Assembly: GCF_012927045.1 (NCBI RefSeq)
Contig: NZ_JABBFW010000034.1
Coordinates: 1-58,780, forward strand
Source of the DNA: Azohydromonas caseinilytica
GTDB taxonomy: Bacteria > Pseudomonadota > Gammaproteobacteria > Burkholderiales > Burkholderiaceae_C
Reading direction: 5' to 3'
DNA: 58,780 bases
The position numbers and the translations under genes are program-made. Of this stretch, positions 4,939-24,365 are shown piece by piece. Below the pieces are notes generated by a model. It was not told the origin of the DNA. It saw nothing but the letters and a program-made list of their open reading frames with translations, and made no database searches. Within the stretch, counting starts at the first letter, position 1, and each line of letters starts with the position of its first letter.

Positions 4939-5709
4939 TCAGCCGCGGGCCCGGTACTCCGAGAAGATGCCCAGCTCCGTGTGACGCTCGACGCCGTGCA
5001 GGCCGTGACTGCCCAGCGTATGCATGACCTGTGCCGGTGGCACGCAGGCCTCGATCGTGTCCCAGTAGTAGCGCCAGAGCATGGGCGTGTCCTTGGCACG
5101 CGACACGGCCCGTGCCAGCAGCGGCACGACACCGCGCATGTAAGCCTTGAGCAGGGTGTGGGCCAGGCGGCCCTCGGGGCGGGTGATCTCCAGGATCAGC
5201 AGCCGACCGCCGGGCTTGAGCACGCGCCGGAACTCGGCCGCGGCCGCGCTGAAGTCGGCAATGTGCCGCAGCGCGTAGCCCATGACCACGAAGTCCGCGC
5301 TGGCGTCGGGTACCGGGATGTCCTCGGCCCGGCCCAGGCGGCACTCCACCGGCTGCTCGAAGCGGGCCTGCCGCATCATTCCCGGGCTCGGGTCCACGCC
5401 CACCAGGCGTTGCGGCTCCCCGGTGATCTTCAGGATCTCGCGCGATACCAGCCCGGTGCCCATGCCCACGTCCACCACCTGCAGCCCCGGCTTGAGCCCG
5501 GCGCGCAGCAGCGCCTGGCGGCGGTACCAGGAGCCCGTGCCCAGGCCCAGGATCTTCTCCAGCCGGTTGTAGTCCACCGCCGTGTCGTCGAAGGTGCGGC
5601 GCAGGAACGCCTCACGCATCGCGGCGTCGTCGGGCTGGTAATACTCGGGCAGCGGCGCGTGGGGCAGGCGTACCGGCGAGGCATCGCGGTCGGGCGAGGA
5701 AGATTGCAT
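4939..5709 (-). CDS. UbiE-like class I SAM methyltransferase, copy 1
   Basis: A 256-residue cytoplasmic class I SAM-dependent methyltransferase of the UbiE/MenG-like group. Motif I is VVDVGMGTGLVSREIL, the acidic loop is VGVDPSPGMM, motif II is DFVVMGYALRHIADF and motif III is VLKPGGRLLILE. The ATG at 5709 (MQSSSPDRD) aligns with the start of the neighbouring copy; a TTG at 5754 would add 15 residues. The target is unknown. Its position just before the aryl-polyene operon suggests methylation of the aryl head group or another polyketide-related quinone or phenol, but this is inference. It and copy 2 (5810-6583) are a tandem duplication, with roughly 20 residue differences by eye. Confidence 0.85.
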   Translation of the reverse strand: MQSSSPDRDASPVRLPHAPLPEYYQPDDAAMREAFLRRTFDDTAVDYNRLEKILGLGTGSWYRRQALLRAGLKPGLQVVDVGMGTGLVSREILKITGEPQRLVGVDPSPGMMRQARFEQPVECRLGRAEDIPVPDASADFVVMGYALRHIADFSAAAAEFRRVLKPGGRLLILEITRPEGRLAHTLLKAYMRGVVPLLARAVSRAKDTPMLWRYYWDTIEACVPPAQVMHTLGSHGLHGVERHTELGIFSEYRARG

Positions 5710-5809
5710 ATGAAGGCGGCGTGGCGGGCAGGTCGGGCCCGGGGCCATGGACAAGGGGTGCTGATGCTACCGCCTCGCCCCGGCCCGGCTGCCCTTGAAC
5801 TTCCGCCCG

Positions 5810-6583
5810 TCAGCCCCGGGCCCGGTACTCCGAGAAGATGCCCAGCTCCGTGTGACGCTCGACGCCGTGCAGGCCATGGTGGTCCAGCGTTCGCATGACC
5901 TGTGCCGGCGCCACGCAGGCCTCGATCGTGTCCCAGGAGTAGCGCCAGAGCAGGGCCGTATCCCTGGTACGCGACACGGCCCGTGCCAGCAGCGGCACGA
6001 CACCGCGCATGTAGGCCTTGAGCAGGGTGTGGGCCAGGCGGCCCTCGGGACGGGAGAACTCCAGGATCAGCAGCCGTCCACCGGGCTTGAGCACGCGCCG
6101 GAACTCGGCCGCAGCCGCGCTGAAGTCGGCAATGTGCCGCAGCGCGTAGCCCATGACCACGAAGTCCGCGCTGGCGTCGGGCACCGGGATGTCCTCGGCC
6201 CGCCCCAGGCGGCACTCCACCGGCTGCTCGAAGCGGGCCTGCCGCATCATTCCCGGGCTCGGGTCCACGCCCACCAGGCGTTGCGGCTCCCCGGTGATCT
6301 TCAAAATCTCGCGCGATACCAGCCCGGTGCCCATGCCCACGTCCACCACCTGCAGCCCCGGCTTGAGCCCGGCGCACAGCAGCGCCTGGCGGCGGTACCA
6401 GGAGCCCGTGCCCAGGCCGACGATCCTCTCCAGCCGGTTGTAGTCCACCGCCGCGTCGTCGAAGGTGCGGCGCAGGAACGCCTCACGCACCGTGGTGTCG
6501 TCGGGCGGGTAGTACGCGGGCAGCGGCGCGTGAGGCAGGCGCACGGGCGAGACCTCGGGATCGGGCAAGGGAGCGGGTGTCAT
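5810..6583 (-). CDS. UbiE-like class I SAM methyltransferase, copy 2
   Basis: A 257-residue paralogue of the methyltransferase at 4939-5709, with the same motifs (DVGMGTGLVSREIL, VGVDPSPGMM, VVMGYALRHIADF, VLKPGGRLLILEF). The start is taken at the ATG at 6583 (MTPAPLPDPEVSPVRLP), where homology to copy 1 begins; a longer frame upstream to 6766 has no homology. Differences between copies lie in the N-terminal 50 residues and the C-terminal third, while about 100 central residues are identical. It is transcribed divergently from the ACP gene at 6846, so the 262-bp gap holds promoters for both directions. Its substrate is unknown. Confidence 0.85.
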   Translation of the reverse strand: MTPAPLPDPEVSPVRLPHAPLPAYYPPDDTTVREAFLRRTFDDAAVDYNRLERIVGLGTGSWYRRQALLCAGLKPGLQVVDVGMGTGLVSREILKITGEPQRLVGVDPSPGMMRQARFEQPVECRLGRAEDIPVPDASADFVVMGYALRHIADFSAAAAEFRRVLKPGGRLLILEFSRPEGRLAHTLLKAYMRGVVPLLARAVSRTRDTALLWRYSWDTIEACVAPAQVMRTLDHHGLHGVERHTELGIFSEYRARG

Positions 6584-6797
6584 GGGGGAACTTCGCAGAC
6601 GGCTCGGGCGGACTGCGGGCAGCAGGCCACTGATGCTACTGCCCCGTCGCGGCGGCTTTCCGTCCTGGCTTGCCCCCATCGGACAACCCTGCCTCGGAGA
6701 ACGCGGGCGAGCGGCAACCGATGCGGGACCGCGGCAAGGCAGCACGACATCCCGGCCGGTGCGCACTCCGCCACGAGGCCCGCCCGGTGGGCACGAC

Positions 6798-6803
6798 TAC
6801 AAT
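6798..6803 (+). promoter_or_regulatory. candidate -10 element for the aryl-polyene operon
   Basis: TACAAT, a good -10 hexamer in otherwise very GC-rich DNA, lies about 43 bp before the chosen GTG start of the ACP gene. No convincing -35 hexamer is visible at the usual spacing, so this is a tentative promoter call. Confidence 0.4.
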
Positions 6804-6845
6804 CCGCCCCTTCTTTGAATGCAGTTTTCCGAGGAACACCACATC

Positions 6846-7145
6846 GTGTCTGCCACCGACGTGAAACCCGCCGGCGATGTGCTGCCGCCTTCCGTGCTGG
6901 AGCCCGAGCTGGCCGAACTCCTGGTCCGGGCCTTGAATCTGGAGATCAGCCCGGCCGATATCGACCCCACCGCGCCCCTGTACGGCGACGCCCTGGGGCT
7001 GGACTCCATCGACATCCTGGAGCTGGCGCTGGAGGTGTCGCAGCGCTACGGCTTCGAGCTTCGCTCCGACGACGAGAACAACCACAGGATCTTCGCCTCG
7101 CTGCGCAGCCTGGCCCTCCATATCGAGCAGCACCGCAAGCGTTGA
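6846..7145 (+). CDS. acyl carrier protein of the aryl-polyene cluster
   Basis: A 99-residue acyl carrier protein. The phosphopantetheine attachment site is GLDSIDILEL with Ser54, in a four-helix ACP context (PELAELLVRALNLEISPADID before it, SQRYGFELRSDDENN after it). The GTG at 6846 is chosen because GAGGA at 6831-6835 is well placed; an ATG at 6819 is in frame but has no ribosome site. It should carry the aryl starter and growing polyene during type II polyketide-like synthesis. Aryl-polyene clusters commonly have two adjacent ACP genes; only one is visible here. It is the first gene of an operon whose later genes mostly overlap by 4 nt. Confidence 0.88.
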   Translation: MSATDVKPAGDVLPPSVLEPELAELLVRALNLEISPADIDPTAPLYGDALGLDSIDILELALEVSQRYGFELRSDDENNHRIFASLRSLALHIEQHRKR

Positions 7146-7155
7146 GCGGATCGTC

Positions 7156-7785
7156 ATGACGCATTGGCAGCTGGGCCTGGCGCTGCTGGGCGTCATCGCT
7201 TACTCGCTGCTGTCTCATGTCCTGATGCTGCACGCGGCCCATGAACCCTGGGCCGTGGCCGCGCTGCTGGGCCCGCTGCTGGCCATGGTCGGCGCGGTGG
7301 CCTGGCGCGGCCGGCATCGCCTCGGGATGTGGGCCGTGCTGCTGGCCGCGCTGGCCCTGCTGGTCGTGGCCCTGCGCGGTGGCGTCGGCGACGTGAAGCT
7401 GCTGTACCTGGTGCAGCATGCCGGCGTCCACGCCGCGCTGGGCGCCAGCTTCGGTCTCACGCTGGCCGGTCCGGGCCCGTCGGCCATCGGCCGCGTGGCG
7501 CAGCAGGTGCACGGCACGCTGCAGCCGGGCATGGCGCGCTACACCTGGCACGTCACGCTGGTGTGGACGCTGTACTTCTTTGCCATGGCCACGGGCTCGG
7601 TGGCGCTGTACCTGTGGGGGCCGTGGGACGCCTGGTCGCTGCTGGCCAACCTGGTCACGCCGGTGGCCATCGCTGTGCTGTTCGTGGGCGAACACCTGTT
7701 GCGCTACCGGCTGCACCCGGAATTCGAACGCGTCTCGCTGCTCGACACGGTGCGCGCCTACCGCAACGTGCCCGCCGACCGATGA
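7156..7785 (+). CDS. COG4648-type membrane protein of aryl-polyene clusters
   Basis: A 209-residue integral membrane protein with about six hydrophobic segments (for example LGLALLGVIAYSLLSHVLML, AVLLAALALLVVALRGG, LVWTLYFFAMATGSVALYLW, LANLVTPVAIAVLFVGEHLLRY). The family, usually annotated COG4648 and sometimes mislabelled as a gyrase subunit, recurs between the ACP and the ligase in aryl-polyene clusters; its biochemical role is unknown. The C-terminal LHPEFERVSLLDTVRAY is a conserved-looking cytoplasmic tail. Its stop overlaps the next start as ATGA. Confidence 0.8.
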   Translation: MTHWQLGLALLGVIAYSLLSHVLMLHAAHEPWAVAALLGPLLAMVGAVAWRGRHRLGMWAVLLAALALLVVALRGGVGDVKLLYLVQHAGVHAALGASFGLTLAGPGPSAIGRVAQQVHGTLQPGMARYTWHVTLVWTLYFFAMATGSVALYLWGPWDAWSLLANLVTPVAIAVLFVGEHLLRYRLHPEFERVSLLDTVRAYRNVPADR

Positions 7786-9185
7786 ACCCGCCGCCCCAAT
7801 CCTCGTCTCCAACTCCCGTGCTTCCCCTTCTTTGCGCGCGCGACCTCGACGCGCCCCTGGCCTGGCGCGGCGGCGTTCCGGTCAGCGCACGCCAGTTCCT
7901 GCGCGACGTGGCACAGCAGGCCGAGCGGCTGCCTGCGCAAGGCGCGGCGCTGAACCTGTGCGTGGACCGCTACCGCTTCAGCGTCGCTTTCGGCGCCGCG
8001 CTGCTGCGCGGCCATGTCTCGCTGTTCCCGCCCAACGCGATGGCACAGACCATCGACCAGCTGCGCCCGCAGCACCCGCAGCTGTGGGCCCTGGCCGACC
8101 CGAGTGACGTGCCGGAGCTGAGCGGCCTGGACATCCTGCCCGTCACCGACGCGGGGCCGGACACCCGCGCCGAAGCCGTCTTCCTGGCGCCGGAGCTGCC
8201 GGCCGCCTGCCTGCTCACGTCCGGCTCGACCGGCGTTCCGCAACCGCATCTGAAGCACTGGGGCACGCTGGTGCGCAACGCCGTCCAGGAGACCCGACGG
8301 CTCGCGGCGCTGCTGCAGCGCCCGGACCTGGACGGCGTCAACATCGTCGCCACCGTGCCGCCGCAGCACAGCTACGGCTTCGAATCCAGCGTGCTGCTGG
8401 CACTGCAGGGCGGTGCTGCCTTCGACGCCGGCCGGCCCTTCTACCCCGCCGACATCGCCGCCGCACTGCGGCGGCTGCCGCGCCCGCGCGCGCTGGTCAC
8501 CACGCCTTTCCACCTCAAGACGCTGCTGCGCTCGGGTGTGGACCTGCCTGCGGTGGACCTGGTGCTCAGTGCCACCGCGCCGCTGTCGCCGCAGCTTGCC
8601 CAGGAAACCGAGCGCCGCTGCGGCGCCGTGCTGGTGGAGATCTACGGCTGCACCGAGGCCGGCCAGGTCGCCACGCGCTGCACCGCGCGCAGCGACCTCT
8701 GGCACACCTTCGACGGGCTGCGCATCGCCCCGCTGCCGGGCCAGCAAGAGGACGAGGGCGAGCGCTACAGCGTGCAGGGCGGCCATGTCGCCGAGCCCAC
8801 GCTGCTGGCCGACATCCTGGAGCTGCAGGACGCCGAGCACTTCCGGCTGCTGGGCCGCGCCAACGACCTGATCCACGTCGCGGGCAAGCGCAGCTCGCTG
8901 GGGCACCTGAACTTCCACCTCAACAGCATCGAGGGCGTGGAGGACGGCGCCTTCTGGCTGCCCGACGAGGTCGCCGACGGCGTGGCGCGCCCGGTGGCGT
9001 TCGTGGTCGCGCCCACGCTGGGCGCGCGCGACATCGCCGCCGCGCTGCGTGCGCGCATCGAGGCCGTGTTCGTGCCGCGGCGCGTCGTGCACCTGCCCCG
9101 GCTGCCGCGCGAGGCCACCGGCAAGCTCACCGCGCAGTCGCTGCGGCAGCTCGCGCGCGAACACCTGTCGCCTCCCGCCCCATGA
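7782..9185 (+). CDS. AMP-dependent acyl/aryl-ACP ligase of the aryl-polyene cluster
   Basis: A 467-residue ANL-superfamily ligase expected to activate the hydroxybenzoate starter as an adenylate and load it on the ACP. The P-loop is LLTSGSTGVPQPHLKHW, the A5 region is EIYGCTEAGQVATR, the A7/A8 hinge appears as LLGRANDLIHVAGKRSSLG, and the catalytic lysine lies in LPREATGKLT near the C-terminus. It is shorter than free-standing acyl-CoA ligases (about 550), as is usual for the aryl-polyene type. It overlaps the preceding and following genes by 4 nt. The XanB2-like chorismatase at 22024-23031 would make its substrate (inference). Confidence 0.87.
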   Translation: MNPPPQSSSPTPVLPLLCARDLDAPLAWRGGVPVSARQFLRDVAQQAERLPAQGAALNLCVDRYRFSVAFGAALLRGHVSLFPPNAMAQTIDQLRPQHPQLWALADPSDVPELSGLDILPVTDAGPDTRAEAVFLAPELPAACLLTSGSTGVPQPHLKHWGTLVRNAVQETRRLAALLQRPDLDGVNIVATVPPQHSYGFESSVLLALQGGAAFDAGRPFYPADIAAALRRLPRPRALVTTPFHLKTLLRSGVDLPAVDLVLSATAPLSPQLAQETERRCGAVLVEIYGCTEAGQVATRCTARSDLWHTFDGLRIAPLPGQQEDEGERYSVQGGHVAEPTLLADILELQDAEHFRLLGRANDLIHVAGKRSSLGHLNFHLNSIEGVEDGAFWLPDEVADGVARPVAFVVAPTLGARDIAAALRARIEAVFVPRRVVHLPRLPREATGKLTAQSLRQLAREHLSPPAP

Positions 9186-9493
9186 CGACGTCCCGCAGCG
9201 TGGTGCGCCGCATCGCGGTGGACCACCCGAGCTTTGCCGGCCATTTCCCGGGCCAGCCCCTGCTGCCCGGCGTGCTGCTGCTGGCCGAGGTGATGGAAGC
9301 CCTTCACGGCGCCGACCTGCCGGCTCCGCCCGGCCAGGCGTACGAGATGCGCAACGTGAAATTCCTCTGCCCGGTGCGCCCTGGCGACGAGATCCGGATC
9401 GAGCTGCAGTGCGAGACCGAGCGCGCCCGCTTCACGGTGCAGTGCCGCGACCAGGTCGCCGCCAGCGGCCAGATCGCCTGGAGCGCGCCATGA
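9182..9493 (+). CDS. hot-dog 3-hydroxyacyl-ACP dehydratase (ApeI-like)
   Basis: A 103-residue single hot-dog domain protein with the FabA/FabZ-like signature HPSFAGHFPGQPLLPGVLLL near the N-terminus (residues about 15-34) and a beta strand MRNVKFLCPVRPGDEI. It is one of two small dehydratases of the cluster that would remove water from 3-hydroxyacyl-ACP to create the conjugated double bonds. It is short compared with FabZ (about 150). The start is fixed by the ATGA overlap with the ligase, and it overlaps the acyltransferase in the same way. Confidence 0.85.
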   Translation: MTTSRSVVRRIAVDHPSFAGHFPGQPLLPGVLLLAEVMEALHGADLPAPPGQAYEMRNVKFLCPVRPGDEIRIELQCETERARFTVQCRDQVAASGQIAWSAP

Positions 9494-10422
9494 GCGGTGA
9501 CGCACCGGTGGCCGCGCCCGCTACCTGGGCCCGCGCGCCCGAGCGCAGCAACATGCTGACGCTGCGGCTCATGTGCTGGATCGCCATGCGCTGCGGCCGC
9601 CGCGTGGCGCGCGCCGTGCTGCACCTCATCGCGCTGTACTTCCTGCTCTTCGCGCCCACGGCACGCCGGCATTCGCAGCGCTACCTGGGCCGTGCGCTGG
9701 GCCGCCCGGCACGCTGGAGCGACGCCTACCGCCACGTGCACAGCTTCGCCGCCACCATCCTGGACCGCGTCTACCTGCTGCGCGGGCGGCTCGACCTGTT
9801 CGACCTGCGGCTGCAGGGCGCCGGGGCGATCGACCAGGCCATGGCCGAGGGCGGTGGCGCCTTCCTGCTGGGCGCGCACCTGGGCAGCTTCGAGGTGTTG
9901 CGCACCGCTGGCAGCGCGCAGGGCGGCCTGCGGGTGGCGATGGTCATGTACCCGGACAACGCCCGCAAGATCAACGCCGCGCTCAATGCCGTCGCTCCCG
10001 ACGCCAAGCCCGAGATCATCGCGCTGGGCCGCATGGACTCGATGCTGGCCGTGCGCGACTGGCTCGATGGCGGCGGCCTGGCCGGCATGCTGGGCGACCG
10101 CGTGCTGCACGATGCCTCGCAGCAGGGCAAGGAGCTGCGCGTGTCCTTCCTGGGCCGCGAGGCGGTGTTCAGCGACGGCCCGTTCCGGCTGGCCGCGCTG
10201 CTGCGCCGGCGCGTCATCTTCATGGCCGGGCTGTACCTGGGCGGCAACCGCTACGAGGTGCGCTTCGAGCCGCTGGCCGACTTCACCCAGCGCTGCGACA
10301 GCGCCGAGCGCGAGCGCCGCATCCGCAGCGCCGTGTGCAGCTACGTCGCGCGGCTGGAATCGCTGTGCCGCGAGCACCCCTACAACTGGTTCAACTTCCA
10401 TGACTTCTGGCATGAGGACTAG
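9490..10422 (+). CDS. LpxL/HtrB-type acyltransferase
   Basis: A 310-residue membrane-associated acyltransferase resembling lipid A late acyltransferases (LPLAT superfamily). The N-terminal hydrophobic stretch LHLIALYFLLFAPTARRHSQRYL is followed by GGGAFLLGAHLGSFEVLRTA, which replaces the usual HxxxxD box (H-L-G-S-F-E here), then GLAGMLGDRV and the C-terminal HPYNWFNFHDFWHED typical of these proteins. In aryl-polyene clusters such enzymes are thought to transfer the polyene or a fatty acid to a lipid anchor. It overlaps genes on both sides. Confidence 0.85.
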   Translation: MSGDAPVAAPATWARAPERSNMLTLRLMCWIAMRCGRRVARAVLHLIALYFLLFAPTARRHSQRYLGRALGRPARWSDAYRHVHSFAATILDRVYLLRGRLDLFDLRLQGAGAIDQAMAEGGGAFLLGAHLGSFEVLRTAGSAQGGLRVAMVMYPDNARKINAALNAVAPDAKPEIIALGRMDSMLAVRDWLDGGGLAGMLGDRVLHDASQQGKELRVSFLGREAVFSDGPFRLAALLRRRVIFMAGLYLGGNRYEVRFEPLADFTQRCDSAERERRIRSAVCSYVARLESLCREHPYNWFNFHDFWHED

Positions 10423-11005
10423 GCGCGGCCTGCTCGCGCTGCTGCTGGCCGGCTGCAGCCTGCCCGCGTTGGCGCTGGAGCTGAACGAGCTGATGACGCT
10501 GCTCGGCCGCCACACCAGCGGGCAGGCCCGCTTCTCGGAGCAGCGCTTCGTCAAGGGCTTCGACGAGCCGCTGCTGGCCAGCGGCACGCTGAGCTTCACG
10601 GCCACGCCGCCGCGCTTCGAGCGCCGCACGCTGGAGCCGCGTGCGGAATCCATGGTGGTCGAGGGCAACACCGTCACGCTCAGCCGCGGCGGGCGCACGC
10701 GCACGCTGGCCCTGGATGCCGCTCCCGAGGCGCTGGTGGCGGTGGAGGCCATGCGCGGCACGCTCACCGGCAACGTCCAGGCGCTGCAGCGCCATTTCCG
10801 CACCAGCCTGCAGGGCAGCCTGGAGCGCTGGACGCTGGATCTCACGCCGCTGTCGGCGAACGCCGCCGGGCAGCTGCGTTTCGTGCGCATCGTCGGCCTG
10901 CGTGACGAGGTGCGCAGCATCGAGACGCAATTGCTCGATGGCGACCGCACGGTGATCACGATCGAGCCGGTGCGCGGCACCGGGGCCGCCGCGCCGGCCC
11001 GGTGA
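10412..11005 (+). CDS. LolA-like outer-membrane lipoprotein carrier protein
   Basis: A 197-residue exported protein. MRTRRGLLALLLAGCSLPALA is a signal peptide, and RFSEQRFVKGFDEPLLASGTLSF followed by ATPPRFERRTLEPRAESMVVEG matches the LolA-like fold that binds acyl chains in the periplasm. The ATG at 10412 is chosen because it gives a clean signal peptide; an ATG at 10400 is also possible. It overlaps the acyltransferase stop, and its stop overlaps the GTG start of the MMPL exporter. The role inferred from the family and context is ferrying the polyene lipid across the periplasm together with the exporter. Confidence 0.85.
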   Translation: MRTRRGLLALLLAGCSLPALALELNELMTLLGRHTSGQARFSEQRFVKGFDEPLLASGTLSFTATPPRFERRTLEPRAESMVVEGNTVTLSRGGRTRTLALDAAPEALVAVEAMRGTLTGNVQALQRHFRTSLQGSLERWTLDLTPLSANAAGQLRFVRIVGLRDEVRSIETQLLDGDRTVITIEPVRGTGAAAPAR

Positions 11006-13374
11006 GCTCCGCCCGCCCCGCCGTCGCGCCGCCGCGCCGCGGCCGCACGGTCCTGCTGCTGTGGCTGCTGCTGATGGCGCTGTGCGTGCTGCTGATCGCG
11101 CGCGCGCGCTTCACGGCCGACCTCTCGGCCTTCCTGCCGGTGAGCCCCAGCGCGCAGCAACGCGTGCTCATCGACCAGCTGCGCAGCGGTGTGGCCTCGC
11201 GCACGCTGCTGGTGGGCATCATCGGCGGCAGCGCCGCCGAGCGCGCCCAGGCCTCGCGCGCGCTGGCGGCCAGCCTGCGCGCCGATGCCCGCTTCGACCA
11301 GGTACACAACGGCGAGCGCGGCGACTGGGCCGCGGCGGGCGAGCTGCTGCTGCGCCACCGCTACCAGCTCAGCCCGGCCGTGGGCGTCCAACGCTTCACG
11401 GTGGAGGGGCTGCGCGACGCCATCGACGAGACGCTCTCCCTGCTGGGCACGCCGGCCGGCGCTGCCGTGAAGCCGCTGCTGGAGCGCGACCCGACCGGCG
11501 AGGTGCAGCGCATCGCCGAGGCCCTGATCCCGGCGCAGGCGCCGCGCCTGGAGGACGGCGTGTGGGTATCGCGCACTGAGCCCCGCGCCCTGCTGCTGCT
11601 GACCTTGCAGGCCGCGGGCGACGACCTCGACGCGCAGGCTGCCGCCATCGACGCCGTGCGCGCGGCCTTCGCTCCGCAGGCCGCGCGCGGGCTGGCGCTG
11701 CAGCTCAGCGGCGCGCCGCTGTTCGCGGTGGACAGCCGCGCACGCATCCAGCACGAGGTGGTCGTCATCGCCGTCACCGGGCTGGTGGTCATCGGCGGCC
11801 TGCTGCTGGCGGCCTTCGCTTCGCTGCGCGCGCTGGCCGTGGCGCTGCTGCCGGTGGCCAGCGGCGTGGCCGCGGGCATCGCGGCGGTGGCGCTGGGCTT
11901 TGGCACCGTGCACGGCATCACCCTGGGCTTCGGCAGCACGCTCATCGGCGAGGCGGTGGACTACGCCCTGTACTACCTGATCCAGGCCCGCGACGGTGGC
12001 TGGCGCCGCTGGCGCGACCACGCCTGGCCGACGGTGCGCCTGGGCCTGCTCACCTCGGTGTGCGGCTTCGCGGCGCTGGTGTTCTCAGGCTTTCCCGGGC
12101 TGGCGCAGCTGGGCGTGTTCTCCGTGGCGGGCCTGGCGGCGGCGGCACTGACCACGCGCTGGGTGCTTCCGGTGCTGGTGCCGGCCGGGGCGACGGGCGC
12201 GGGCCGGCTGCAGCCGCTGGGCCGCTGGACCCTGCGTGCCGTGCACCTGTTGGGCCGCGCCCGGCGCCCGGCCTGGCTGCTGGGCGGCGTGGCCGCGCTG
12301 CTGCTGGCATGGCCGGGCCAGCCGCCCTGGCGCGGCGACCTGGCCTCGCTCAGCCCGGTGCCCGCCGCCGCGCAACGACTGGACGCCTCGCTGCGCGCGG
12401 ACCTCGGCGCCAGCGACGCCCGCACCCTGGTCGTGGCCAGCGGCGCCGACCTGCAGGCCGCGCTGCGCGGCGCCGAGGCCGCCGCGGCGCGGCTGGATAC
12501 GCTGGTCGAACAGGGCGTCATCGGCGGCTACGAGGCGCCCACCCGCGTCCTGCCCAGCCTGGCCACCCAACAGCAGCGCCAAGCCGCGCTGCCCGAGGCC
12601 CAGGCGCTGCGGGAGAGCCTGGCCCAGGCCGTGCGCGGCACGCCGCTGGCGCAGCGCTCGCTGGAACCTTTCCTGGCGGAAGTCCAGGCCGCGCGCGCGC
12701 TGCCGCCGCTGACGCCGGAGGCGCTGGCCGGCACGCCGCTGAAGGCGGTGGTGGATGCGCTGGTGATCCGACGCTCCGACGGCGGCTGGACTGCGCTGCT
12801 GCCGCTGCAGCCGCCCGCCCGGGCCGATGCCGGCATCGACGCACCGCGCGTGCAGGCCGCGCTGCAGGGGCTGCCGGGCGAGGTGGCGGTGCTGGACATC
12901 AAGCAGGAGCTCGACGGCCTGTACGCACGCTACCTGCACGAGGCACTGATCCAGGCGCTGCTGGGCGTGGTTGCGGTGGTGGCGCTGCTGGGGTGGCAGC
13001 TGCGCTCGCTGCGCCGGCTGTGGACGGCCTGCCTGCCGCTGGCGCTGTCGGTGCTGATCACGCTGGGCGGCTTCGTCGCGCTCGGGGTGCCGCTGGGCAT
13101 CCTGCATCTCGTGGGGCTTTTGCTGGTGGTGGCAGTGGGCTCCAACTACGCCCTGTTCTTCGTGCAGTGGCCGATGGCGGCGACCGGCGCGGCGCCCGAC
13201 GAGCGCCAGGCCGACACGCTGGCCTCGCTGCTGCTGGCCAACGTGACCGCGGTGTGCGGCTTCGGGCTGATCGCGCTGTCGCAGATCCCCGCGCTGTCGG
13301 CCATCGGCCGCGTCGTGGCGCCGGGCGTGCTGCTCGCGCTGCTGCTGTGCTCGGCCTTTGCGCCACGGCGCTGA
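11002..13374 (+). CDS. MMPL/RND-family exporter of the aryl-polyene cluster
   Basis: A 790-residue inner-membrane transporter of the MMPL type. It has one N-terminal transmembrane helix (VLLLWLLLMALCVLLIARARF), a large periplasmic loop, then a five-helix bundle (from VVVIAVTGLVVIGGLLLAAFASL to LPVLVPAG), and repeats this plan in the second half (helix near LLGGVAALLLAWPGQPPWRGDL, loop, bundle from ALLGVVAVVALLGWQL to VLLALLLCSAFAP). The bundle segments GSTLIGEAVDYALYYLIQAR and VGSNYALFFVQW carry the conserved acidic or small residues of this family. The GTG start overlaps the LolA-like gene. It probably extracts the finished polyene lipid from the inner membrane. Confidence 0.88.
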   Translation: MSSARPAVAPPRRGRTVLLLWLLLMALCVLLIARARFTADLSAFLPVSPSAQQRVLIDQLRSGVASRTLLVGIIGGSAAERAQASRALAASLRADARFDQVHNGERGDWAAAGELLLRHRYQLSPAVGVQRFTVEGLRDAIDETLSLLGTPAGAAVKPLLERDPTGEVQRIAEALIPAQAPRLEDGVWVSRTEPRALLLLTLQAAGDDLDAQAAAIDAVRAAFAPQAARGLALQLSGAPLFAVDSRARIQHEVVVIAVTGLVVIGGLLLAAFASLRALAVALLPVASGVAAGIAAVALGFGTVHGITLGFGSTLIGEAVDYALYYLIQARDGGWRRWRDHAWPTVRLGLLTSVCGFAALVFSGFPGLAQLGVFSVAGLAAAALTTRWVLPVLVPAGATGAGRLQPLGRWTLRAVHLLGRARRPAWLLGGVAALLLAWPGQPPWRGDLASLSPVPAAAQRLDASLRADLGASDARTLVVASGADLQAALRGAEAAAARLDTLVEQGVIGGYEAPTRVLPSLATQQQRQAALPEAQALRESLAQAVRGTPLAQRSLEPFLAEVQAARALPPLTPEALAGTPLKAVVDALVIRRSDGGWTALLPLQPPARADAGIDAPRVQAALQGLPGEVAVLDIKQELDGLYARYLHEALIQALLGVVAVVALLGWQLRSLRRLWTACLPLALSVLITLGGFVALGVPLGILHLVGLLLVVAVGSNYALFFVQWPMAATGAAPDERQADTLASLLLANVTAVCGFGLIALSQIPALSAIGRVVAPGVLLALLLCSAFAPRR

Positions 13375-18481: not shown

Positions 18482-19021
18482 ATGAAGAAGAAGGCCCTGA
18501 GCTGGATGCTGCCGGTGGCGGTGATTGCGCTGAGCGGTTGCGCGGCCAACGTTGTCAAGAGCGGCAACAACGACATCCGCGTGCCGCCCGAGGCGGCGAA
18601 GAAGATCGTGCTGAGCGTGAGCGGCGCCCCGACAGTGACCGGCTCGGCCGATTGGGCACCGTTCCGGGGCGAACTGCGCAACGCCTTCGCCAATGAGGCC
18701 GAGGCCGCCGGCATCGCGTTCACGATGGGCGACGGCACGGTCAAGCCCACCGGCGAGGCGGGCACGCTGCTGTCGGTGCAGGTCAACGACTACCGCTACC
18801 TCAGCACGGGCGCGCGCTACGGCCTGGGCATCATGACGGGCAACGCCTTCGTCAATGCCAACGTGCGCTACCTCGACCTCAAGACCGGCCGCAGCTTCGG
18901 CGAGCAGACCGTCAACACCAGCTCCACGGCCTGGCAGGGCGTGTTCTCGGCCATGACCGACAAGCAGCTGCAGGCCATCGCGCACGACGTGGTGGGCGAG
19001 ATCCGCAAGCCGCAACGCTGA
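18482..19021 (+). CDS. DUF4410-like lipoprotein
   Basis: A 179-residue predicted lipoprotein. The signal MKKKALSWMLPVAVIALSGC ends in a lipobox (L-S-G-C), and the mature part includes VPPEAAKKIVLSVSG, WAPFRGELRNAFANEAEAAG, GTLLSVQVNDYRYLSTGARY and MTDKQLQAIAHDVVGEI, matching the DUF4410 lipoprotein pattern. The biochemical role is unknown; envelope location next to pigment export genes is suggestive only. AGGAGA provides a good ribosome site. Confidence 0.78.
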   Translation: MKKKALSWMLPVAVIALSGCAANVVKSGNNDIRVPPEAAKKIVLSVSGAPTVTGSADWAPFRGELRNAFANEAEAAGIAFTMGDGTVKPTGEAGTLLSVQVNDYRYLSTGARYGLGIMTGNAFVNANVRYLDLKTGRSFGEQTVNTSSTAWQGVFSAMTDKQLQAIAHDVVGEIRKPQR

Positions 19022-19052: not shown

Positions 19053-19622
19053 ATGGCCATTCGTACCACCGCCGCGGCCCTCCTGGTGGCCGCGCTGCCG
19101 CTGGCCGCCACTGCGCAGTCGCTGCCCGATCCGGGCTACCTGTGCTGCAACATGCGCACCAGCGGCAACTGGATCAGCGACATCAACTATGCCTCCAGCG
19201 GAACGCGCGTGATCCCTGCGGGCACGCCGGTCACGCCCACCGGTTTCGGGCGCTACCGGGTGCACGTCACCATCGAGGGCACCCCGCAGGACATCGGCAA
19301 CGACTACAGCCGCGAGCTCGACATGGGCGTCTTTGCCCGGCGCTACGTGGTGCCCGACAACCCCGCCGCCGCGATTGCGAAGATGCCGCGCAAGGTGCGC
19401 CAAGCCATCCAATCCGCGCGCGTGATGCCGGGCATGACGCGCGAGCAGGTGCTGATGGCCGTGGGCTACCCGATCACCAGCGAGAACCCCAATCTGAACG
19501 CCAGGGTCTGGCGCTACTGGCTGTCGAGGACCCAGGAATTCCAGGTGGTGTTCGATGCCAGGAACCGCGTCGGGGAAGTCATCGCCGATCCGCAGACCCG
19601 AGCTCTGGCGGTGATGAACTGA
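19053..19622 (+). CDS. exported protein with a C-terminal BamE/OmlA-like domain
   Basis: A 189-residue secreted or periplasmic protein with signal peptide MAIRTTAAALLVAALPLAATAQS. The middle region (GTRVIPAGTPVTPTGFGRYRVHV) looks like a small beta-rich domain. The C-terminal third, VMPGMTREQVLMAVGYPI followed by ARVWRYWLSRTQEFQVVFD, is the SmpA/OmlA (BamE-like) fold. There is no lipobox. It follows the lipoprotein by 31 bp with a GGAGG ribosome site, so both are probably one transcript. Its role is unknown. Confidence 0.75.
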   Translation: MAIRTTAAALLVAALPLAATAQSLPDPGYLCCNMRTSGNWISDINYASSGTRVIPAGTPVTPTGFGRYRVHVTIEGTPQDIGNDYSRELDMGVFARRYVVPDNPAAAIAKMPRKVRQAIQSARVMPGMTREQVLMAVGYPITSENPNLNARVWRYWLSRTQEFQVVFDARNRVGEVIADPQTRALAVMN

Positions 19623-19652: not shown

Positions 19653-20456
19653 TCAGGGCTGGAACGGCGGGCGCCGCAGCCCGCGGCGCAGCAGCAGTAC
19701 CGGCAGCCGCAGCACGAACTCCAGCACCAGCCGCGTGTGCATCCAGGTCAGCAGCACGTTGTCGCGGCCATAGCGGAAGTGCGAGACACCGCCCTCCTCG
19801 GGCTTGAGGTACTTCACCGGCGCGTCGATGTTGACGGGCTTGACGCCGCGCCAGGCCAGGCGCACCACGGCCTCGGTGTCGAAGTCGAAGCGCCGCATCC
19901 AGGGCTGGCGCGCCATCACCGCCACCAGCGCCGCCACCGGGTAGACGCGGAAGCCGTAGAGCGAATCGCCCACGCCGGCGCCCAGCGTCTCCAAATCGGT
20001 CCAGCCGTTGGAGATGCGCCGCCCGCGCACGCGCAGCAGCGGCGCGCTGGCGTCGAACACCGGCTTGCCCAGGATCATGGCCTCGGGCCGCCGCATCGAC
20101 GCCTGCATGAAGCTCGGGATCAGCGCCGCGGGATGCTGCCCGTCGGCGTCCATGGTCAGCGCGTGCGTGAAGCCGGCGGCCTGCGCAGCCTTCAGGCCAT
20201 GCAGCACGGCCGATCCCTTGCCCTGGTTGCGCGGCAGCACCCACACGCGCAGGCCAGCGTCGTCCTGTGCCATGCGCTGCAGCCCCTCGGCGGTACCGTC
20301 GTTGCTGCCGTCCACCACCACCCACACCGGGCACCACTGCGCACGCGCCTCGCGCACCGTCTCGTAGACCTTGGCACCGGTGTTGTAGCTGGGGATGAGG
20401 ACGAGGTGCGTGCGCGACGGCGTGGCCACGGCGGCGGAAACGGTGCTGGAGGTCAT
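19653..20456 (-). CDS. GT2-family glycosyltransferase of the aryl-polyene cluster
   Basis: A 267-residue GT-A fold family 2 glycosyltransferase: THLVLIPSYNTGAKV, VVVDGSNDGTAEGL, LPRNQGKGSAVLHGL, and the DxD-type metal site MDADGQHP. The C-terminal part has a hydrophobic, basic stretch (VLEFVLRLPVLLLRRGLRR) suggesting membrane association. It probably attaches a sugar or related group to the polyene or its lipid anchor. Its start overlaps the PlsC-like stop by 4 nt; it is the last gene of the minus-strand tailoring operon. Confidence 0.87.
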   Translation of the reverse strand: MTSSTVSAAVATPSRTHLVLIPSYNTGAKVYETVREARAQWCPVWVVVDGSNDGTAEGLQRMAQDDAGLRVWVLPRNQGKGSAVLHGLKAAQAAGFTHALTMDADGQHPAALIPSFMQASMRRPEAMILGKPVFDASAPLLRVRGRRISNGWTDLETLGAGVGDSLYGFRVYPVAALVAVMARQPWMRRFDFDTEAVVRLAWRGVKPVNIDAPVKYLKPEEGGVSHFRYGRDNVLLTWMHTRLVLEFVLRLPVLLLRRGLRRPPFQP

Positions 20457-21202
20457 GGCTTGCGGGACGCCGGCGGCTTCACGTTCGCGGCGAAATAGTC
20501 CTCGAGCTGGCGCAGCAGCGCATCGGCGTCCGGCGAGGGCGCGAAGCGCTCGCCCAGGCGCAGCGTGAACACGATGGGCAGCGGCGGCAGGCGCCAGATC
20601 GGCCAGCCCTTGCCGAGATAGGGCGAGTCGGTGTCGATGAACACCGTCTGGATCGGCGCATTGGCCAGCTTGGCGATCAGCGTCACGCCCGGGCGAAAGG
20701 GGTTGACCGGGTACTTCGTGGTGCGCGTGCCTTCCGGAAAGATCACGAGCTGGCCGCCGGCCCGCAGGTCCTCGATGGCCAGGCGCACCATGCTGCGCGG
20801 CGAGTCGTTGCGGATGTAGCGCGCCAGGCGGGCGCCGGCGCCCAGGAACAGGTTGCGCATCAGCTGCGCCTTCATGATGCAGGCGCTGCGCGGCAGCCGC
20901 GCCACCAGCGCCAGCGCGTCGATCATGCTGGGATGGTTGGCCACCACGATCAGCCCGGGCTCGTCACGCAGCGTGTCGAGCACGCGGTTGTCGATGCGCA
21001 GCATGCCGCTGCAGCGGGCGATGGCCCAGAACAGCCGGTAGCCGTAGGCGATGCCCGCGCGCCCGACGGCCCGCCCGCGCGGGCGCGGCAGCACCGGGTA
21101 CAGCAGCATCGCGATCGCGTTCCAGCTCAGCGATATCAACCCCAGCAACGCCAGCTGGCCATGCAGCAGCAGCGTCAGCGGCAGCGCAAGCAACGACTTC
21201 AT
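20453..21202 (-). CDS. PlsC-like 1-acyl-glycerol-phosphate acyltransferase family protein
   Basis: A 249-residue membrane-anchored acyltransferase with an N-terminal hydrophobic segment (LLALPLTLLLHGQLALLGLISL), the NHxxxxD box as VVANHPSMIDALAL, and the glycerophosphate-binding box as VIFPEGTRTTKY. It is distinct from the LpxL-like enzyme at 9490; clusters of this type carry both. It likely acylates the lipid part of the conjugate. It lies 6 bp after the MipA-like gene and overlaps the glycosyltransferase gene. Confidence 0.87.
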   Translation of the reverse strand: MKSLLALPLTLLLHGQLALLGLISLSWNAIAMLLYPVLPRPRGRAVGRAGIAYGYRLFWAIARCSGMLRIDNRVLDTLRDEPGLIVVANHPSMIDALALVARLPRSACIMKAQLMRNLFLGAGARLARYIRNDSPRSMVRLAIEDLRAGGQLVIFPEGTRTTKYPVNPFRPGVTLIAKLANAPIQTVFIDTDSPYLGKGWPIWRLPPLPIVFTLRLGERFAPSPDADALLRQLEDYFAANVKPPASRKP

Positions 21203-21208
21203 CCGGCC

Positions 21209-22027
21209 TCAGTCCTCATCAACCTGTCGATCCGACGTCGCGAACACCCACGACACCGCGACGCCCACGGACCAATGCTCGCGCTGGCGCACCAGCGGGC
21301 TGTCCAGGAAGCTCGCTCCGCGCAGGCTGTCCCAGCGCAGGAAACCGCCCAACCACCAGTTGTCCACGCGCCGCGACACGGCCCCCAGCAGGTACCCACC
21401 GGCCGCGCCACCGCCGGGGCGGTAGGCCGGGCGTCCGGGCGCTGCCTCCGCCGGGGAGACGCCGTAGAACAGCTCGTTGTAGCGCCGGTCCTGCGCGATG
21501 GCCGCCGCCGCCACCCCGACGCGCCAGCCGCGCAGGTCGGTCAGGTCGAGGTTGAGCTGCGGCGTGGCGACCCAGCCCTTGAAGCCGCCGTTGGAGCCCA
21601 CGCCCAGCGCGGCACGCACGGGCAGCCGCAGGTCGAGCTTCCAGCCCTGGCCGCGGCCCAGGGTCCAGTTGACGTTGGGGCCGAACTCGACGATGGGCGG
21701 CAGGTCCTCCATGCCGCGGCGCGCCTCGTTGTCGTCGCTGCGCGTGGGCGGACTGGCCGCCAGGCTGAGATCGAAGTCCAGCCGGTCGGTTTCCAGGAGC
21801 ACGGCGCGCGCGCCCTCGCGGTCGGCCTTGAGGATCTCGCCGCGGTACACGACGTAGGGCACCGGCAGCACCCAGGTGTGCGACTGGTCCGAGCCGCGGT
21901 AGTGCGGCAGCCGCAGCACCCCGGCGCCGAGGCCCAGCTCCCACAGCGGCTGCGACTGCGCCCGCGCCAGCGGCGCGGCCAGCACCAGGGTCAGCGCCAC
22001 GGGCGCGGCAACGATGCTTTTCCTCAT
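21209..22027 (-). CDS. MipA/OmpV-family outer-membrane protein
   Basis: A 272-residue beta-barrel-type protein of the MipA/OmpV family. MRKSIVAAPVALTLVLAAPLARAQS is the signal peptide, followed by WELGLGAGVLRLPHYRGSDQS, VLPVPYVVYRGEILKADREGARA and the closing strand HWSVGVAVSWVFATSDRQ, near but not at the C-terminus. MipA-like proteins sit in the outer membrane; here it may form or support the export route for the pigment. The start overlaps the chorismatase stop (ATGA). Confidence 0.85.
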   Translation of the reverse strand: MRKSIVAAPVALTLVLAAPLARAQSQPLWELGLGAGVLRLPHYRGSDQSHTWVLPVPYVVYRGEILKADREGARAVLLETDRLDFDLSLAASPPTRSDDNEARRGMEDLPPIVEFGPNVNWTLGRGQGWKLDLRLPVRAALGVGSNGGFKGWVATPQLNLDLTDLRGWRVGVAAAAIAQDRRYNELFYGVSPAEAAPGRPAYRPGGGAAGGYLLGAVSRRVDNWWLGGFLRWDSLRGASFLDSPLVRQREHWSVGVAVSWVFATSDRQVDED

Positions 22028-23031
22028 GTGACCAGTTCCCCTGGGGCGCTGCCATGCGCCTCGATCTCGACCAGCAGGTCGGCACGGCAGACATCGGCCT
22101 GCAGCATCACGGCCGAGCGCACGGCGTGCGCATCGGCGCCCAGTCGGTCCTGCAGCAGGCGCTGCACCGTGGCGGCGTGCTCGGCATGGCGCACGTAGAT
22201 CACGCAGTCGAAGTCCCGCAGCGCAAGGCGCGCGCTGCAGCGCGCCTCGGCCGCGGCGATCACCGTCTGCAGGTTGAGCAGCGTCTCCAGCGTCTGCGCC
22301 TCGACATCGCCCGCATGCAGGCTGAGATGGCCGGCAATGCTGGCCGTGCCGGAAACCAGCAGCGCCACCCGTCCCGGCGGCAACGGCACCAGCGCCGCGC
22401 GCGAGAAGGTCGGGCTGCGCGGGCCGTACGCCGACGGGTAGTGGTAGGCCGGCACCTGGCGCGGGTTCTCCACCGGCACGGCGGCCTGCGTGCCGGCCAG
22501 GAAACGCACGCACAGGGGCCCGCCCTGCACGCCCAGGCAGCTCGCGGCCGGTGCCCCCTCGAAGGCCGCCTGGCCGGCGTCCAGGAAGGCGAGCTGGCGC
22601 CCGGCGTTGAAATGGCGGTAGCGCTCCAGCCCGTCCTGCGCCTCGTTGATGCGCGGCACGTAGTTCCACAGCCGCAGCAGGTGGCGGCACCCGGTAGCCT
22701 GCAGCGCGGCAAAGATGTCGGCATAGGCCTGGCGCACCAGGGCCTGCAGCCCGATGCCCTCTGCCGCCTCGTCGATCTCCAGCGCGCCCCAGAGCCAGCG
22801 CCCGTCATGGCGCCAGCGCACCCGGCCGCTGCGGCCCTCCCGCACCGTGCCGACGCCGCTCCAGGCGTCCACCATCGGGGCGGCCGACAGCACCGGCGCG
22901 CGCACCGCGTCCGGGCCATCGCCATAGCCCAGGCCACCGAGCAGCGTGGTCGCGAGCAGAGACTGAGGCCAGGCCGCCAGCGCCATGCGCCGGACCTGCA
23001 GCGGCGCTGGGGCAAGGAGCGACGTCGTCAT
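22024..23031 (-). CDS. xanB2: XanB2-like chorismatase (chorismate to hydroxybenzoate)
   Basis: A 335-residue protein of the FkbO/Hyg5/XanB2 chorismatase family. These enzymes cleave chorismate to pyruvate plus a hydroxybenzoate or dihydroxybenzoate without cofactors. Diagnostic segments are RLWNYVPRINEAQDGLERYRHFNAGRQLAF, VGTVREGRSG and a RidA-like C-terminal domain (NLQTVIAAAEAR, DFDCVIYVRHAEHAATVQ, MLQADVCRADLLVEIEAHG). XanB2 of Xanthomonas yields 3- and 4-hydroxybenzoate and feeds the yellow pigment xanthomonadin. Position in the tailoring operon, overlapping the halogenase-like gene, fits supply of the aryl starter. Which isomer is formed cannot be read from the sequence. Confidence 0.87.
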   Translation of the reverse strand: MTTSLLAPAPLQVRRMALAAWPQSLLATTLLGGLGYGDGPDAVRAPVLSAAPMVDAWSGVGTVREGRSGRVRWRHDGRWLWGALEIDEAAEGIGLQALVRQAYADIFAALQATGCRHLLRLWNYVPRINEAQDGLERYRHFNAGRQLAFLDAGQAAFEGAPAASCLGVQGGPLCVRFLAGTQAAVPVENPRQVPAYHYPSAYGPRSPTFSRAALVPLPPGRVALLVSGTASIAGHLSLHAGDVEAQTLETLLNLQTVIAAAEARCSARLALRDFDCVIYVRHAEHAATVQRLLQDRLGADAHAVRSAVMLQADVCRADLLVEIEAHGSAPGELVT

Positions 23032-24365
23032 GACTGGATGGTCTCGCCCTGCAGCGGCCCGAGGTCGCGGATGTTGCGCCGGCGCATCTTCCAGGCGCCG
23101 AAAGTGCGCCGGGCATGGCGCAGCGACACCATGTAGTACAGCGCCTTGAGGACGCGCAGCGAGCGCCAGATCGGCGTGCCGCGGTAGAGGTCACCGGCCA
23201 GCAGCGACAGCAGCGCCTCCTTCACCCGGAACATGTTCTGCGGGTACATAAAGAACTCGCGCATGGTCGGGTTGGTGACGCGGAAAATGAACCACGAGAA
23301 CTCGCGCGGACCCTTGCGCATCATGGCCTCGAAGCGCCGCCGCGCGCGCGCAGCCTCCGCGCCCGGACGGTCCAGGCAGGTGGCCACGACCTCGGCGCCC
23401 TCGAAGGCACTCTGCATGGCCAGGAACACGCCCGAGGAGAACACCGGGTCGATGAAGGCAAAGGCGTCGCCCAGCAGCAGGTAGCGCTCGCCGCTGCAGT
23501 GCGTGGCGCTGTAGGAGTAGTTGCCCGTGGCGTGCACCACGTCGTCCACCAGCGTGGCGTCCTTGAGCCGCTCGGCGAGCTTGGGACACAGGGCGATGGT
23601 GTCGGCGAAGAAGTCCTTGAGCGGCTTGTTGCGCGACTTCAGGTAATACGGCCAGCACACCGCGCCCACGCTGGTGGTGCCGTCGGCCAGCGGAATGAAC
23701 CAGAACCAGCCGTGCGCGAACCAGAAGATGGTGATGTTGCCTTCGAGCTGCCCGGGCAGGCGCTGGGCGTCGCGGAAGTGGCCGAACAGTGCCGAGCTGT
23801 TGTGCCTGGGGTTCTTCTCCTTGGCGCGCATCCTGTTGGCCAGGAAGGTGTCGCGGCCCGAGGCATCGATCACGAAGCGCGCACGCCAGCGGCACTCCTG
23901 GCCGTCGCCGAGCTGCGCCTGCACGGTGGCGCCCTCGGCATCGAAGTCCACCTCGCGCACGCGGCAGTTCTCCAGCGTGCGCGCGCCCTGCGCCGCGGCG
24001 TGGCGGAACAGGATCTCGTCCAGCTCCGAGCGCCGCACCTGCCAGGCATAGGGCAGCGACTTGTCCCAGGCGTCGCCAAACTCCAGGAAGCTGGAGTGCT
24101 CGTGCTGCGGCGAGACGAACTCCACGCCCCACTTGGGCATGCCGATGCGCTCCACCTCCCCGCGCAGCCCGAGCTTGTCGAACAACGGCACGTTGGCCGG
24201 CAGCAGTGACTCGCCGATGTGGAAGCGCGGATGCTGCGACTTCTCCAGCATCACCACATCGCGCCCCTGCTGCGCCAGCAGCGTCGCGATGGTGGAGCCG
24301 GCGGGGCCGCCGCCGATGACGAGCACATCGCAGTGTTGCGTCGCTTGGGGGGGAGAAGCGGTCAT
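23028..24365 (-). CDS. FAD-dependent halogenase-like flavoprotein
   Basis: A 445-residue flavoprotein of the tryptophan-halogenase/geranylgeranyl-reductase-like group. It has the N-terminal FAD motif VLVIGGGPAGSTIATLL, FHIGESLLPANVPLFDKLG, the second FAD motif YLLLGDAFAFIDPVFSSGVF, and the halogenase hallmark W-x-W-x-I-P, present as WFWFIP (residues 220-225). Lys78 in GMPKWGVEF is a candidate for the catalytic lysine. Flavin-dependent halogenases use FADH2, O2 and halide; a comparable gene accompanies xanthomonadin synthesis, whose products are brominated. The protein could instead be a hydroxylase or reductase. It is first in the operon, followed by the chorismatase with a 4-nt overlap. Confidence 0.83.
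   Translation of the reverse strand: MTASPPQATQHCDVLVIGGGPAGSTIATLLAQQGRDVVMLEKSQHPRFHIGESLLPANVPLFDKLGLRGEVERIGMPKWGVEFVSPQHEHSSFLEFGDAWDKSLPYAWQVRRSELDEILFRHAAAQGARTLENCRVREVDFDAEGATVQAQLGDGQECRWRARFVIDASGRDTFLANRMRAKEKNPRHNSSALFGHFRDAQRLPGQLEGNITIFWFAHGWFWFIPLADGTTSVGAVCWPYYLKSRNKPLKDFFADTIALCPKLAERLKDATLVDDVVHATGNYSYSATHCSGERYLLLGDAFAFIDPVFSSGVFLAMQSAFEGAEVVATCLDRPGAEAARARRRFEAMMRKGPREFSWFIFRVTNPTMREFFMYPQNMFRVKEALLSLLAGDLYRGTPIWRSLRVLKALYYMVSLRHARRTFGAWKMRRRNIRDLGPLQGETIQS

What the first reader, a model, noticed from the sequence alone, without database searches (positions are those of the whole stretch)
4939..24365. Xanthomonadin-like aryl-polyene cluster with its own chorismatase and a halogenase-type flavoenzyme in a betaproteobacterium
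The sequence shows a near-complete aryl-polyene operon facing a minus-strand operon with a FAD enzyme carrying W-x-W-x-I-P (residues 220-225) and a XanB2-type chorismatase, translationally coupled by a 4-nt overlap. Known family roles predict a hydroxybenzoate starter made on site and a halogenated or hydroxylated aryl polyene. Halogenated aryl polyenes are best known from Xanthomonas. A betaproteobacterial version with extra methyltransferases, a GT2 and a deacetylase could yield a new glycolipid pigment.
Basis: partly seen in the sequence, partly recalled or inferred. Interest (0 to 1): 0.78.

Follow-up and report, generated by a model that had tools for sequence, protein, structure and literature searches.

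The report
Xanthomonadin-type yellow pigment gene cluster
This stretch of an Azohydromonas genome carries what looks like a full gene set for a yellow, membrane-bound aryl-polyene pigment of a type already known from related bacteria, including an enzyme that looks like a halogenase but may not add halogen in practice.

Summary
Window 4939-24365 carries an intact xanthomonadin-type aryl-polyene (APE) cluster with ACP, ligase, KS, KS2, dehydratases, ketoreductase, LolA/MMPL export genes, three methyltransferase genes, a XanB2-like chorismatase and a flavin-dependent halogenase (FDH)-family enzyme with W220-F-W-F-I-P225 and a 4-nt ATGA overlap. The host is an Azohydromonas species; two congeners carry the cluster. 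It is not a new kind: gene set and order match the arc clusters of the betaproteobacterium Azoarcus BH72 (PMC3949708), whose arcA is already labelled halogenase. GT2, deacetylase and one methyltransferase are standard parts. The flavoenzyme belongs to the FDH fold family by motifs (80 of 80 relatives examined) and predicted structure. It is tied to APE: 33 of 35 genomes of the order that carry it also carry the APE KS2 gene. Whether it halogenates is open: arcuflavin, from the arcA-bearing strain, is non-brominated, and nine paralogues of untested function have the same motif set. The two UbiE-type methyltransferases are an APE-associated family, duplicated in Azohydromonas. Verdict: new member of a known kind; halogenation plausible, untested.

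The parts
4939..5754 (-). UbiE-type methyltransferase copy b (APE-associated family)
   Evidence: Pfam Ubie_methyltran; 22 of 300 order genomes carry the family, 21 of these 22 with the APE KS2 gene
5810..6766 (-). UbiE-type methyltransferase copy a, tandem duplicate of copy b; real start probably near residue 62 (inference)
   Evidence: Pfam Ubie_methyltran; 93.8% nt identity over 764 nt to copy b; two copies also in G483 and G484
6819..7145 (+). acyl carrier protein
   Evidence: PP-binding; DSI serine at 63
7156..7785 (+). membrane protein at the arcU position (COG4648-type, name recalled)
   Evidence: no Pfam hit; conserved in G483 and G484
7782..9185 (+). AMP-forming aryl ligase (ArcT-like)
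   Evidence: AMP-binding over cut-off, scanned on the longer frame 7329-9185; start set
9182..9493 (+). ApeI/FabA-like dehydratase
   Evidence: FabA and ApeI-like over cut-off
9490..10422 (+). LpxL-like acyltransferase (ArcR-like)
   Evidence: Lip_A_acyltrans 32.6 against cut-off 22.3 bits
10412..11005 (+). LolA-like outer-membrane lipoprotein carrier
   Evidence: LolA_3; start set
11002..13374 (+). MMPL-family exporter
   Evidence: MMPL
13457..14335 (+). polysaccharide deacetylase (ArcN-like)
   Evidence: Polysacc_deac_1
14349..15101 (+). SAM methyltransferase (ArcM-like)
   Evidence: Methyltransf_23/25
15098..16282 (+). ketosynthase
   Evidence: ketoacyl-synt N and C; CSSS at 162, H289 and H323 conserved
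16279..17082 (+). KS2, chain-length-factor-like protein (ArcJ / Lysobacter ORF16 position)
   Evidence: Ketoacyl-synt_2
17079..17534 (+). presumed second dehydratase (arcI position; ApeP-type, name recalled)
   Evidence: no Pfam match; homologue in 28 of 80 named loci, between KS2 and KR as arcI is
17549..18280 (+). FabG-type ketoreductase
   Evidence: adh_short
18482..19021 (+). lipoprotein-like protein of unknown function, lineage-restricted
   Evidence: no Pfam match; found in 2 of 80 loci; in G483, not found in G484
19053..19622 (+). BamE-domain protein, lineage-restricted
   Evidence: BamE; found in 3 of 80 loci
19653..20456 (-). GT2 glycosyltransferase (ArcE-like)
   Evidence: Glycos_transf_2
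20453..21202 (-). PlsC-type acyltransferase (ArcD-like)
   Evidence: Acyltransferase
21209..22027 (-). MipA outer-membrane protein (ArcC-like)
   Evidence: MipA; start set
22024..23031 (-). XanB2/ArcB-like chorismatase
   Evidence: FkbO_Hyg5-like_N over cut-off; TIGR04444 217 bits, below its cut-off 325; PDB 5ag3, 5a3k, 4bps
23028..24365 (-). flavin-dependent halogenase-family enzyme (ArcA-like)
   Evidence: Trp_halogenase; motifs; predicted fold

Best explanation
An aryl-polyene pigment cluster of the xanthomonadin/arcuflavin type in an Azohydromonas species. Inferred pathway: the chorismatase makes 3-hydroxybenzoate from chorismate; the AMP-ligase loads it on the dedicated ACP; KS plus the chain-length-factor-like KS2, the ketoreductase and two dehydratases build the conjugated polyene; acyltransferases, LolA-like and MMPL proteins and MipA anchor and move it to the outer membrane; methyltransferases decorate the aryl head. 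The flavoenzyme is an APE-dedicated FDH-family enzyme, presumably fed FADH2 by a reductase encoded elsewhere, that most likely acts on the electron-rich phenolic head, with halogenation as the leading chemistry (about 45 to 50% on this evidence). Shown here: gene content, conservation, motifs, predicted fold, APE association. Inferred: every reaction step and the product.
For: Domain content. Same gene set, and same order within each block, as arcA-E, arcH-K and arcM-V (table in PMC3949708; arcO has no counterpart recognised). In that paper ArcB made 3-HBA and 4-HBA and ArcT activated 3-HBA. Conserved in two congeners. The flavoenzyme co-occurs with APE KS2 in 33 of 35 genomes; 55 of 300 carry KS2 overall. 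In 31 of 80 named loci no core APE gene above 42% identity lies in the held flank (25 of the 31 have full flanks); 12 of these 31 were tested genome-wide and 12 of 12 have a KS2 homologue. FDH motifs 80 of 80. Top structures are FDHs. dN/dS 0.083.
Against: For halogenation: arcuflavin is non-brominated although arcA is present (the ArcA sequence itself was not compared here). Nine paralogues at about 30-33% identity, function not examined, have the whole motif set, so the motifs do not prove activity in this branch. The family lacks one residue just before the catalytic Lys (0 of 80 have it; the 5 FDHs aligned do). Deep nodes of the tree are unresolved. For the pathway: the chorismatase falls below the NCBIfam subfamily cut-off, and the second dehydratase has no Pfam match.
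Confidence: 0.85

Rival explanations
1. The flavoenzyme is an FDH-fold monooxygenase that hydroxylates (or otherwise oxidises) the aryl head rather than halogenating it, with methyltransferases then methylating the new oxygen.
For: Non-brominated, methylated arcuflavin from the arcA-bearing strain. Related folds include hydroxylases such as QhpG (peptidyl tryptophan dihydroxylase). A family-wide one-residue deletion precedes the catalytic Lys.
Against: WxWxIP, proposed to prevent hydroxylation (PMC10696468, passages), is present in 80 of 80. The QhpG homologue of the same genome lacks it. Among KS2-bearing genomes the UbiE methyltransferase is not associated with the flavoenzyme (14 of 33 with it, 7 of 22 without, p 0.57).
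Confidence: 0.35
2. The flavoenzyme is a halogenase that is silent or halide-limited under laboratory conditions, so strains show non-brominated pigment unless bromide is supplied. (This is a form of the halogenase reading, not an alternative to it.)
For: All halogenase motif positions are conserved under purifying selection. Xanthomonas pigments range from 0 to 2 Br (PMC3691225, passages).
Against: No halide-feeding result was seen in the passages and listings looked at; no search was aimed at it.
Confidence: 0.3
3. The product is a dialkylresorcinol ester hybrid like arcuflavin.
For: Related betaproteobacteria combine APE and DAR clusters.
Against: The only ACP_syn_III_C match over cut-off in the genome is a FabH-like protein beside FA_synthesis (PlsX) and Acyl_transf_1 (FabD) genes; the other, below cut-off, is a thiolase. 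That DarB should match this Pfam family is recalled, not tested.
Confidence: 0.07

Closest known systems
arc clusters of Azoarcus sp. BH72 (arcuflavin), PMC3949708
   Same: Halogenase-chorismatase-MipA-acyltransferase-GT block; KR-dehydratase-KS2-KS block; ACP-arcU-ligase-dehydratase-acyltransferase-LolA-exporter-deacetylase-methyltransferase block
   Different: One locus here against two unlinked loci there; no counterpart of arcF, arcL, arcO or the two-component genes was recognised inside the window cluster; arcG (Na+/H+ antiporter) may correspond to the exchanger gene just outside at 24453; the UbiE pair is not in their table; no DarB candidate found here
xanthomonadin cluster of Xanthomonas, as described in PMC3691225 and PMC3949708
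   Same: XanB2-type starter supply, KS with KS2-type partner, halogenase gene, dehydratase, ketoreductase and acyltransferase
   Different: Xanthomonas pigments are brominated, product here unknown; Xanthomonas sequences and gene order were not compared here
FDHs CndH, RadH, PltA, Mpy16, ChlB4
   Same: Fold, GxGxxG, catalytic Lys, WxWxIP, FxxPxxSxG
   Different: 28-34% identity in Foldseek alignments; one residue fewer before the catalytic Lys; no characterised close relative found

Membership tests
Xanthomonadin/arcuflavin-type APE cluster | KS with CSSS plus adjacent KS2/chain-length-factor-like gene | tested here: met
Xanthomonadin/arcuflavin-type APE cluster | ACP, AMP-ligase, ketoreductase and an ApeI-type dehydratase | tested here: met
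Xanthomonadin/arcuflavin-type APE cluster | second dehydratase | tested here: inconclusive
   17079-17534 has no Pfam match; right position and conserved in 28 of 80 loci
Xanthomonadin/arcuflavin-type APE cluster | LolA, MMPL exporter and acyltransferase genes | tested here: met
Xanthomonadin/arcuflavin-type APE cluster | XanB2-like chorismatase next to the halogenase-like gene | tested here: met
   28 of 80 named loci have chorismatase, PlsC and GT2 on the flavoenzyme's strand
Xanthomonadin/arcuflavin-type APE cluster | product is an aryl polyene absorbing at 420-460 nm | not testable with these tools
   needs pigment extraction
Flavin-dependent halogenase | GxGxxG, catalytic Lys, WxWxIP, FxxPxxSxG | tested here: met
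   80 of 80 relatives; also met by 9 of 9 paralogues, not by the QhpG and GGR-like controls; motif list from passages of PMC10377541 and PMC10696468
Flavin-dependent halogenase | Pfam Trp_halogenase over cut-off; FDH fold | tested here: met
   95.3 against 21 bits
Flavin-dependent halogenase | phylogenetic placement inside a characterised halogenase clade | tested here: inconclusive
   own clade, support 98; deep nodes 23-44
Flavin-dependent halogenase | halide-dependent activity | not testable with these tools
   no assay; arcuflavin of the arcA strain non-brominated
CmlS equivalog NF033113 | curated cut-off 900 bits | tested here: not met
   192.1 bits
XanB2/Hyg5/FkbO chorismatase | PF21168 over cut-off | tested here: met
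   134.3 against 27 bits
XanB2/Hyg5/FkbO chorismatase | TIGR04444 curated cut-off | tested here: not met
   217.2 against 325 bits; so the subfamily label is not claimed, only likeness to XanB2/ArcB by context

The most novel reading that the evidence does not exclude
The ArcA-like flavoenzymes form their own FDH subfamily dedicated to aryl polyenes, mainly in betaproteobacteria. They keep every halogenase motif but carry a fixed one-residue shortening before the catalytic lysine, and they make halogenated (or alternatively hydroxylated) aryl polyenes not yet seen outside Xanthomonas.
Probability: 0.35. Interest if true: 0.45.

Novelty: new member of a known kind. Interest (0 to 1): 0.22.

Why it matters
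The cluster itself is ordinary. I saw no characterised member in the papers listed or read. One in vitro assay would tell whether WxWxIP plus Lys predicts halogenation in this branch, and whether brominated aryl polyenes exist beyond Xanthomonas.

Tried and rejected
Coupling of the UbiE methyltransferase to the flavoenzyme: the raw co-occurrence is strong (15 of 22 UbiE genomes, expected 2.6), and 7 of 31 off-cluster flavoenzyme loci have UbiE on the opposite strand close by (next door in the two read). Among KS2-bearing genomes the association is gone (14 of 33 against 7 of 22, p 0.57), so both are simply APE genes.

Dialkylresorcinol hybrid: no DarB candidate by PF08541. Grouping with reductases: not borne out by motifs and fold. 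Motifs as proof of halogenation: rejected, because 9 of 9 paralogues share the whole set; one of them, L130, pairs with CndH in the tree at 80.

The Na+/H+ exchanger gene beside the flavoenzyme as a cluster member: left out, as it was found in G483 but not in the stretch of G484. Homologues at 35-36% do lie between GT2 and KR in some relatives (L102, L105, L106), as arcG does, so this is not settled. The UbiEa dN/dS was wrong (a stop in the compared stretch shifted the frame); redone.

Counts: flavoenzyme genomes are 35 of 300; 14 of the 49 genomes matching were dropped as paralogues at 30-35% identity, and one of the 35 (G256) is a partial match. The 80 named loci are the best 80 of 588, so near relatives are favoured. 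The overlap count is 21 of 29 printed loci (30 of 80 have the chorismatase; the start codon nearest the flavoenzyme stop was chosen, which favours overlap). The tree used 37 sequences: 21 family members (window and every fourth of the 80), 5 PDB stretches, 11 others.

Papers: PMC3949708 passages and its Discussion section; PMC3691225, PMC8269204, PMC10696468, PMC10377541 and PMC11021962 passages; all others as search listings only. The names COG4648, ApeP, PlsX/FabD/FabH as gene names and the link DarB-PF08541 are recalled.
Full report
What is there. The window is the whole of contig C28 of a 6.65-Mb, 98-contig genome. A congener, G484, has its cluster on a contig of 308183 bases, the length of Azohydromonas australica DSM 1124 scaffold NZ_KE387208.1, whose flavoenzyme is 94% identical to the window's; so the host is very probably an Azohydromonas species. 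Between 4939 and 24365 lie 22 genes (parts list) with most of the domains expected of a type II aryl-polyene synthase, export system and tailoring set. The KS has CSSS and conserved histidines; the ACP has its DSI serine. The gene at 17079-17534, in the place of the second dehydratase, has no Pfam match. The flavoenzyme carries W220-F-W-F-I-P225, and its stop overlaps the chorismatase start as ATGA.

Is it maintained? Congeners G483 and G484 keep the cluster at 71-98% protein identity, except that the lipoprotein gene at 18482 was not found in G484; the flanking HCDH, ALDH and integrase-fragment genes are not found in the stretches fetched. G485, the fourth genome of the genus, has no match to the flavoenzyme or the UbiE protein. 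dN/dS against G483 is 0.083 for the flavoenzyme and 0.12-0.26 for eight other genes.

Is it new? No. PMC3949708 lists for Azoarcus sp. BH72 arcA halogenase, arcB chorismatase, arcC MipA, arcD acyltransferase, arcE glycosyltransferase, arcH-K reductase, dehydratase, KS-N domain and ketosynthase, and in a second locus arcM methyltransferase, arcN deacetylase, arcP exporter, arcQ LolA, arcR acyltransferase, arcS dehydratase, arcT ligase, arcU, arcV ACP. The window has these in one locus. So does part of a Zoogloeaceae bacterium contig, L106, with flavoenzyme, chorismatase, MipA, PlsC, GT2, exchanger, KR, 17079-type gene, KS2, KS, methyltransferase, deacetylase and MMPL in that order. The paper names further betaproteobacterial examples (Dechloromonas, Variovorax, Sideroxydans). 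Among 80 named loci (the best 80 of 588; all contain the flavoenzyme by construction) 30 have the chorismatase, 46 GT2 and 46 PlsC within the held flanks; 28 have chorismatase, PlsC and GT2 on its strand.

How dedicated is the flavoenzyme? In a sample of 300 genomes of the order, 35 carry it, 55 carry KS2, 33 both (Fisher p 6e-27). Conversely 22 of the 55 KS2 genomes lack it, so the polyene core does not need it. 12 of 12 tested genomes in which it stands apart from core genes also have a KS2 homologue, at 33-59% identity.

Is it a halogenase? For: Trp_halogenase Pfam over cut-off; the five best PDB sequence matches are Mpy16, CndH, ChlB4, RadH and PltA; the predicted structure (mean pLDDT 89.3) matches FDHs and 3nix in ranks 1-40 before the first reductase-like entry; all four motif elements are kept in 80 of 80, while the QhpG homologue and a GGR-like protein of the same genome lack the set. 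PMC10696468 proposes that WxWxIP prevents hydroxylation (passages). Against: arcuflavin is non-brominated, though the ArcA sequence was not at hand; 9 of 9 paralogues of unexamined function keep the whole motif set; the family lacks one residue directly before the Lys (0 of 80); the tree shows a supported own clade but no supported sister among characterised enzymes. Consistent with a halogen role elsewhere: Lysobacter lacks the gene and its pigment shows no bromine pattern, while Xanthomonas has a halogenase gene and brominated pigments (PMC3691225 passages). I put halogenation at about 45-50%.

The chorismatase falls in the FkbO/Hyg5/XanB2 superfamily (PDB 5ag3, 5a3k, 4bps) but below the TIGR04444 cut-off. 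PMC3949708 says that sequence alignment alone does not predict the product accurately, so 3-HBA is inferred from cluster context.

The extra methyltransferases. MT3 (14349) is the ArcM counterpart by position. The two UbiE-type genes at 4939-6766 belong to a family found in 22 of 300 order genomes, 21 of these with APE KS2, so they are most likely APE tailoring genes. Two copies occur in 3 of 4 genus genomes examined. Within the window the copies differ at dS 0.11, less than each differs from its counterpart in G483 (0.27 and 0.23), which points to gene conversion. No evidence was found that GT2 or the deacetylase makes a glycolipid; both have counterparts in the arc clusters.

Literature. No paper on Azohydromonas aryl polyenes appeared among the 10 listed of 26 found. 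No functional study of a betaproteobacterial APE halogenase appeared in the listings (4 of 4; 20 of 59; 20 of 639; 10 of 10; 5 of 5) or 62 (7 of 7). The library holds only open-licence papers.

Searches were added; they showed no Pfam match for the second dehydratase and the full motif set in all nine paralogues.

Noticed in passing
4939-6766: Tandem UbiE-type methyltransferase copies with identical runs of 70, 100 and 68 bp and lower dS within the genome than between genomes, suggesting gene conversion.
   Followed up: yes
4070-4537: Short frame resembling the C-terminal part of a phage integrase at the left edge of the cluster (Pfam 22.9 bits, below cut-off 27.1).
   Followed up: no
39545-46752: Two neighbouring large hybrid histidine kinases with several PAS domains, their listed frames overlapping.
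   Followed up: no
L072, L073, L076, L078, L081, L084, L112: In Variovorax and Hydrogenophaga the flavoenzyme gene stands away from the APE core genes with a UbiE-type methyltransferase on the opposite strand close by.
   Followed up: partly
L124-L129: A second FDH-like family (about 30% identity, function not examined) in genomes of the order carries the whole FDH motif set.
   Followed up: partly
G000:C32:39987-41285 (L145): The host genome has a QhpG homologue (419 bits, cut-off 240); the only one among 185 genomes of the class searched.
   Followed up: no
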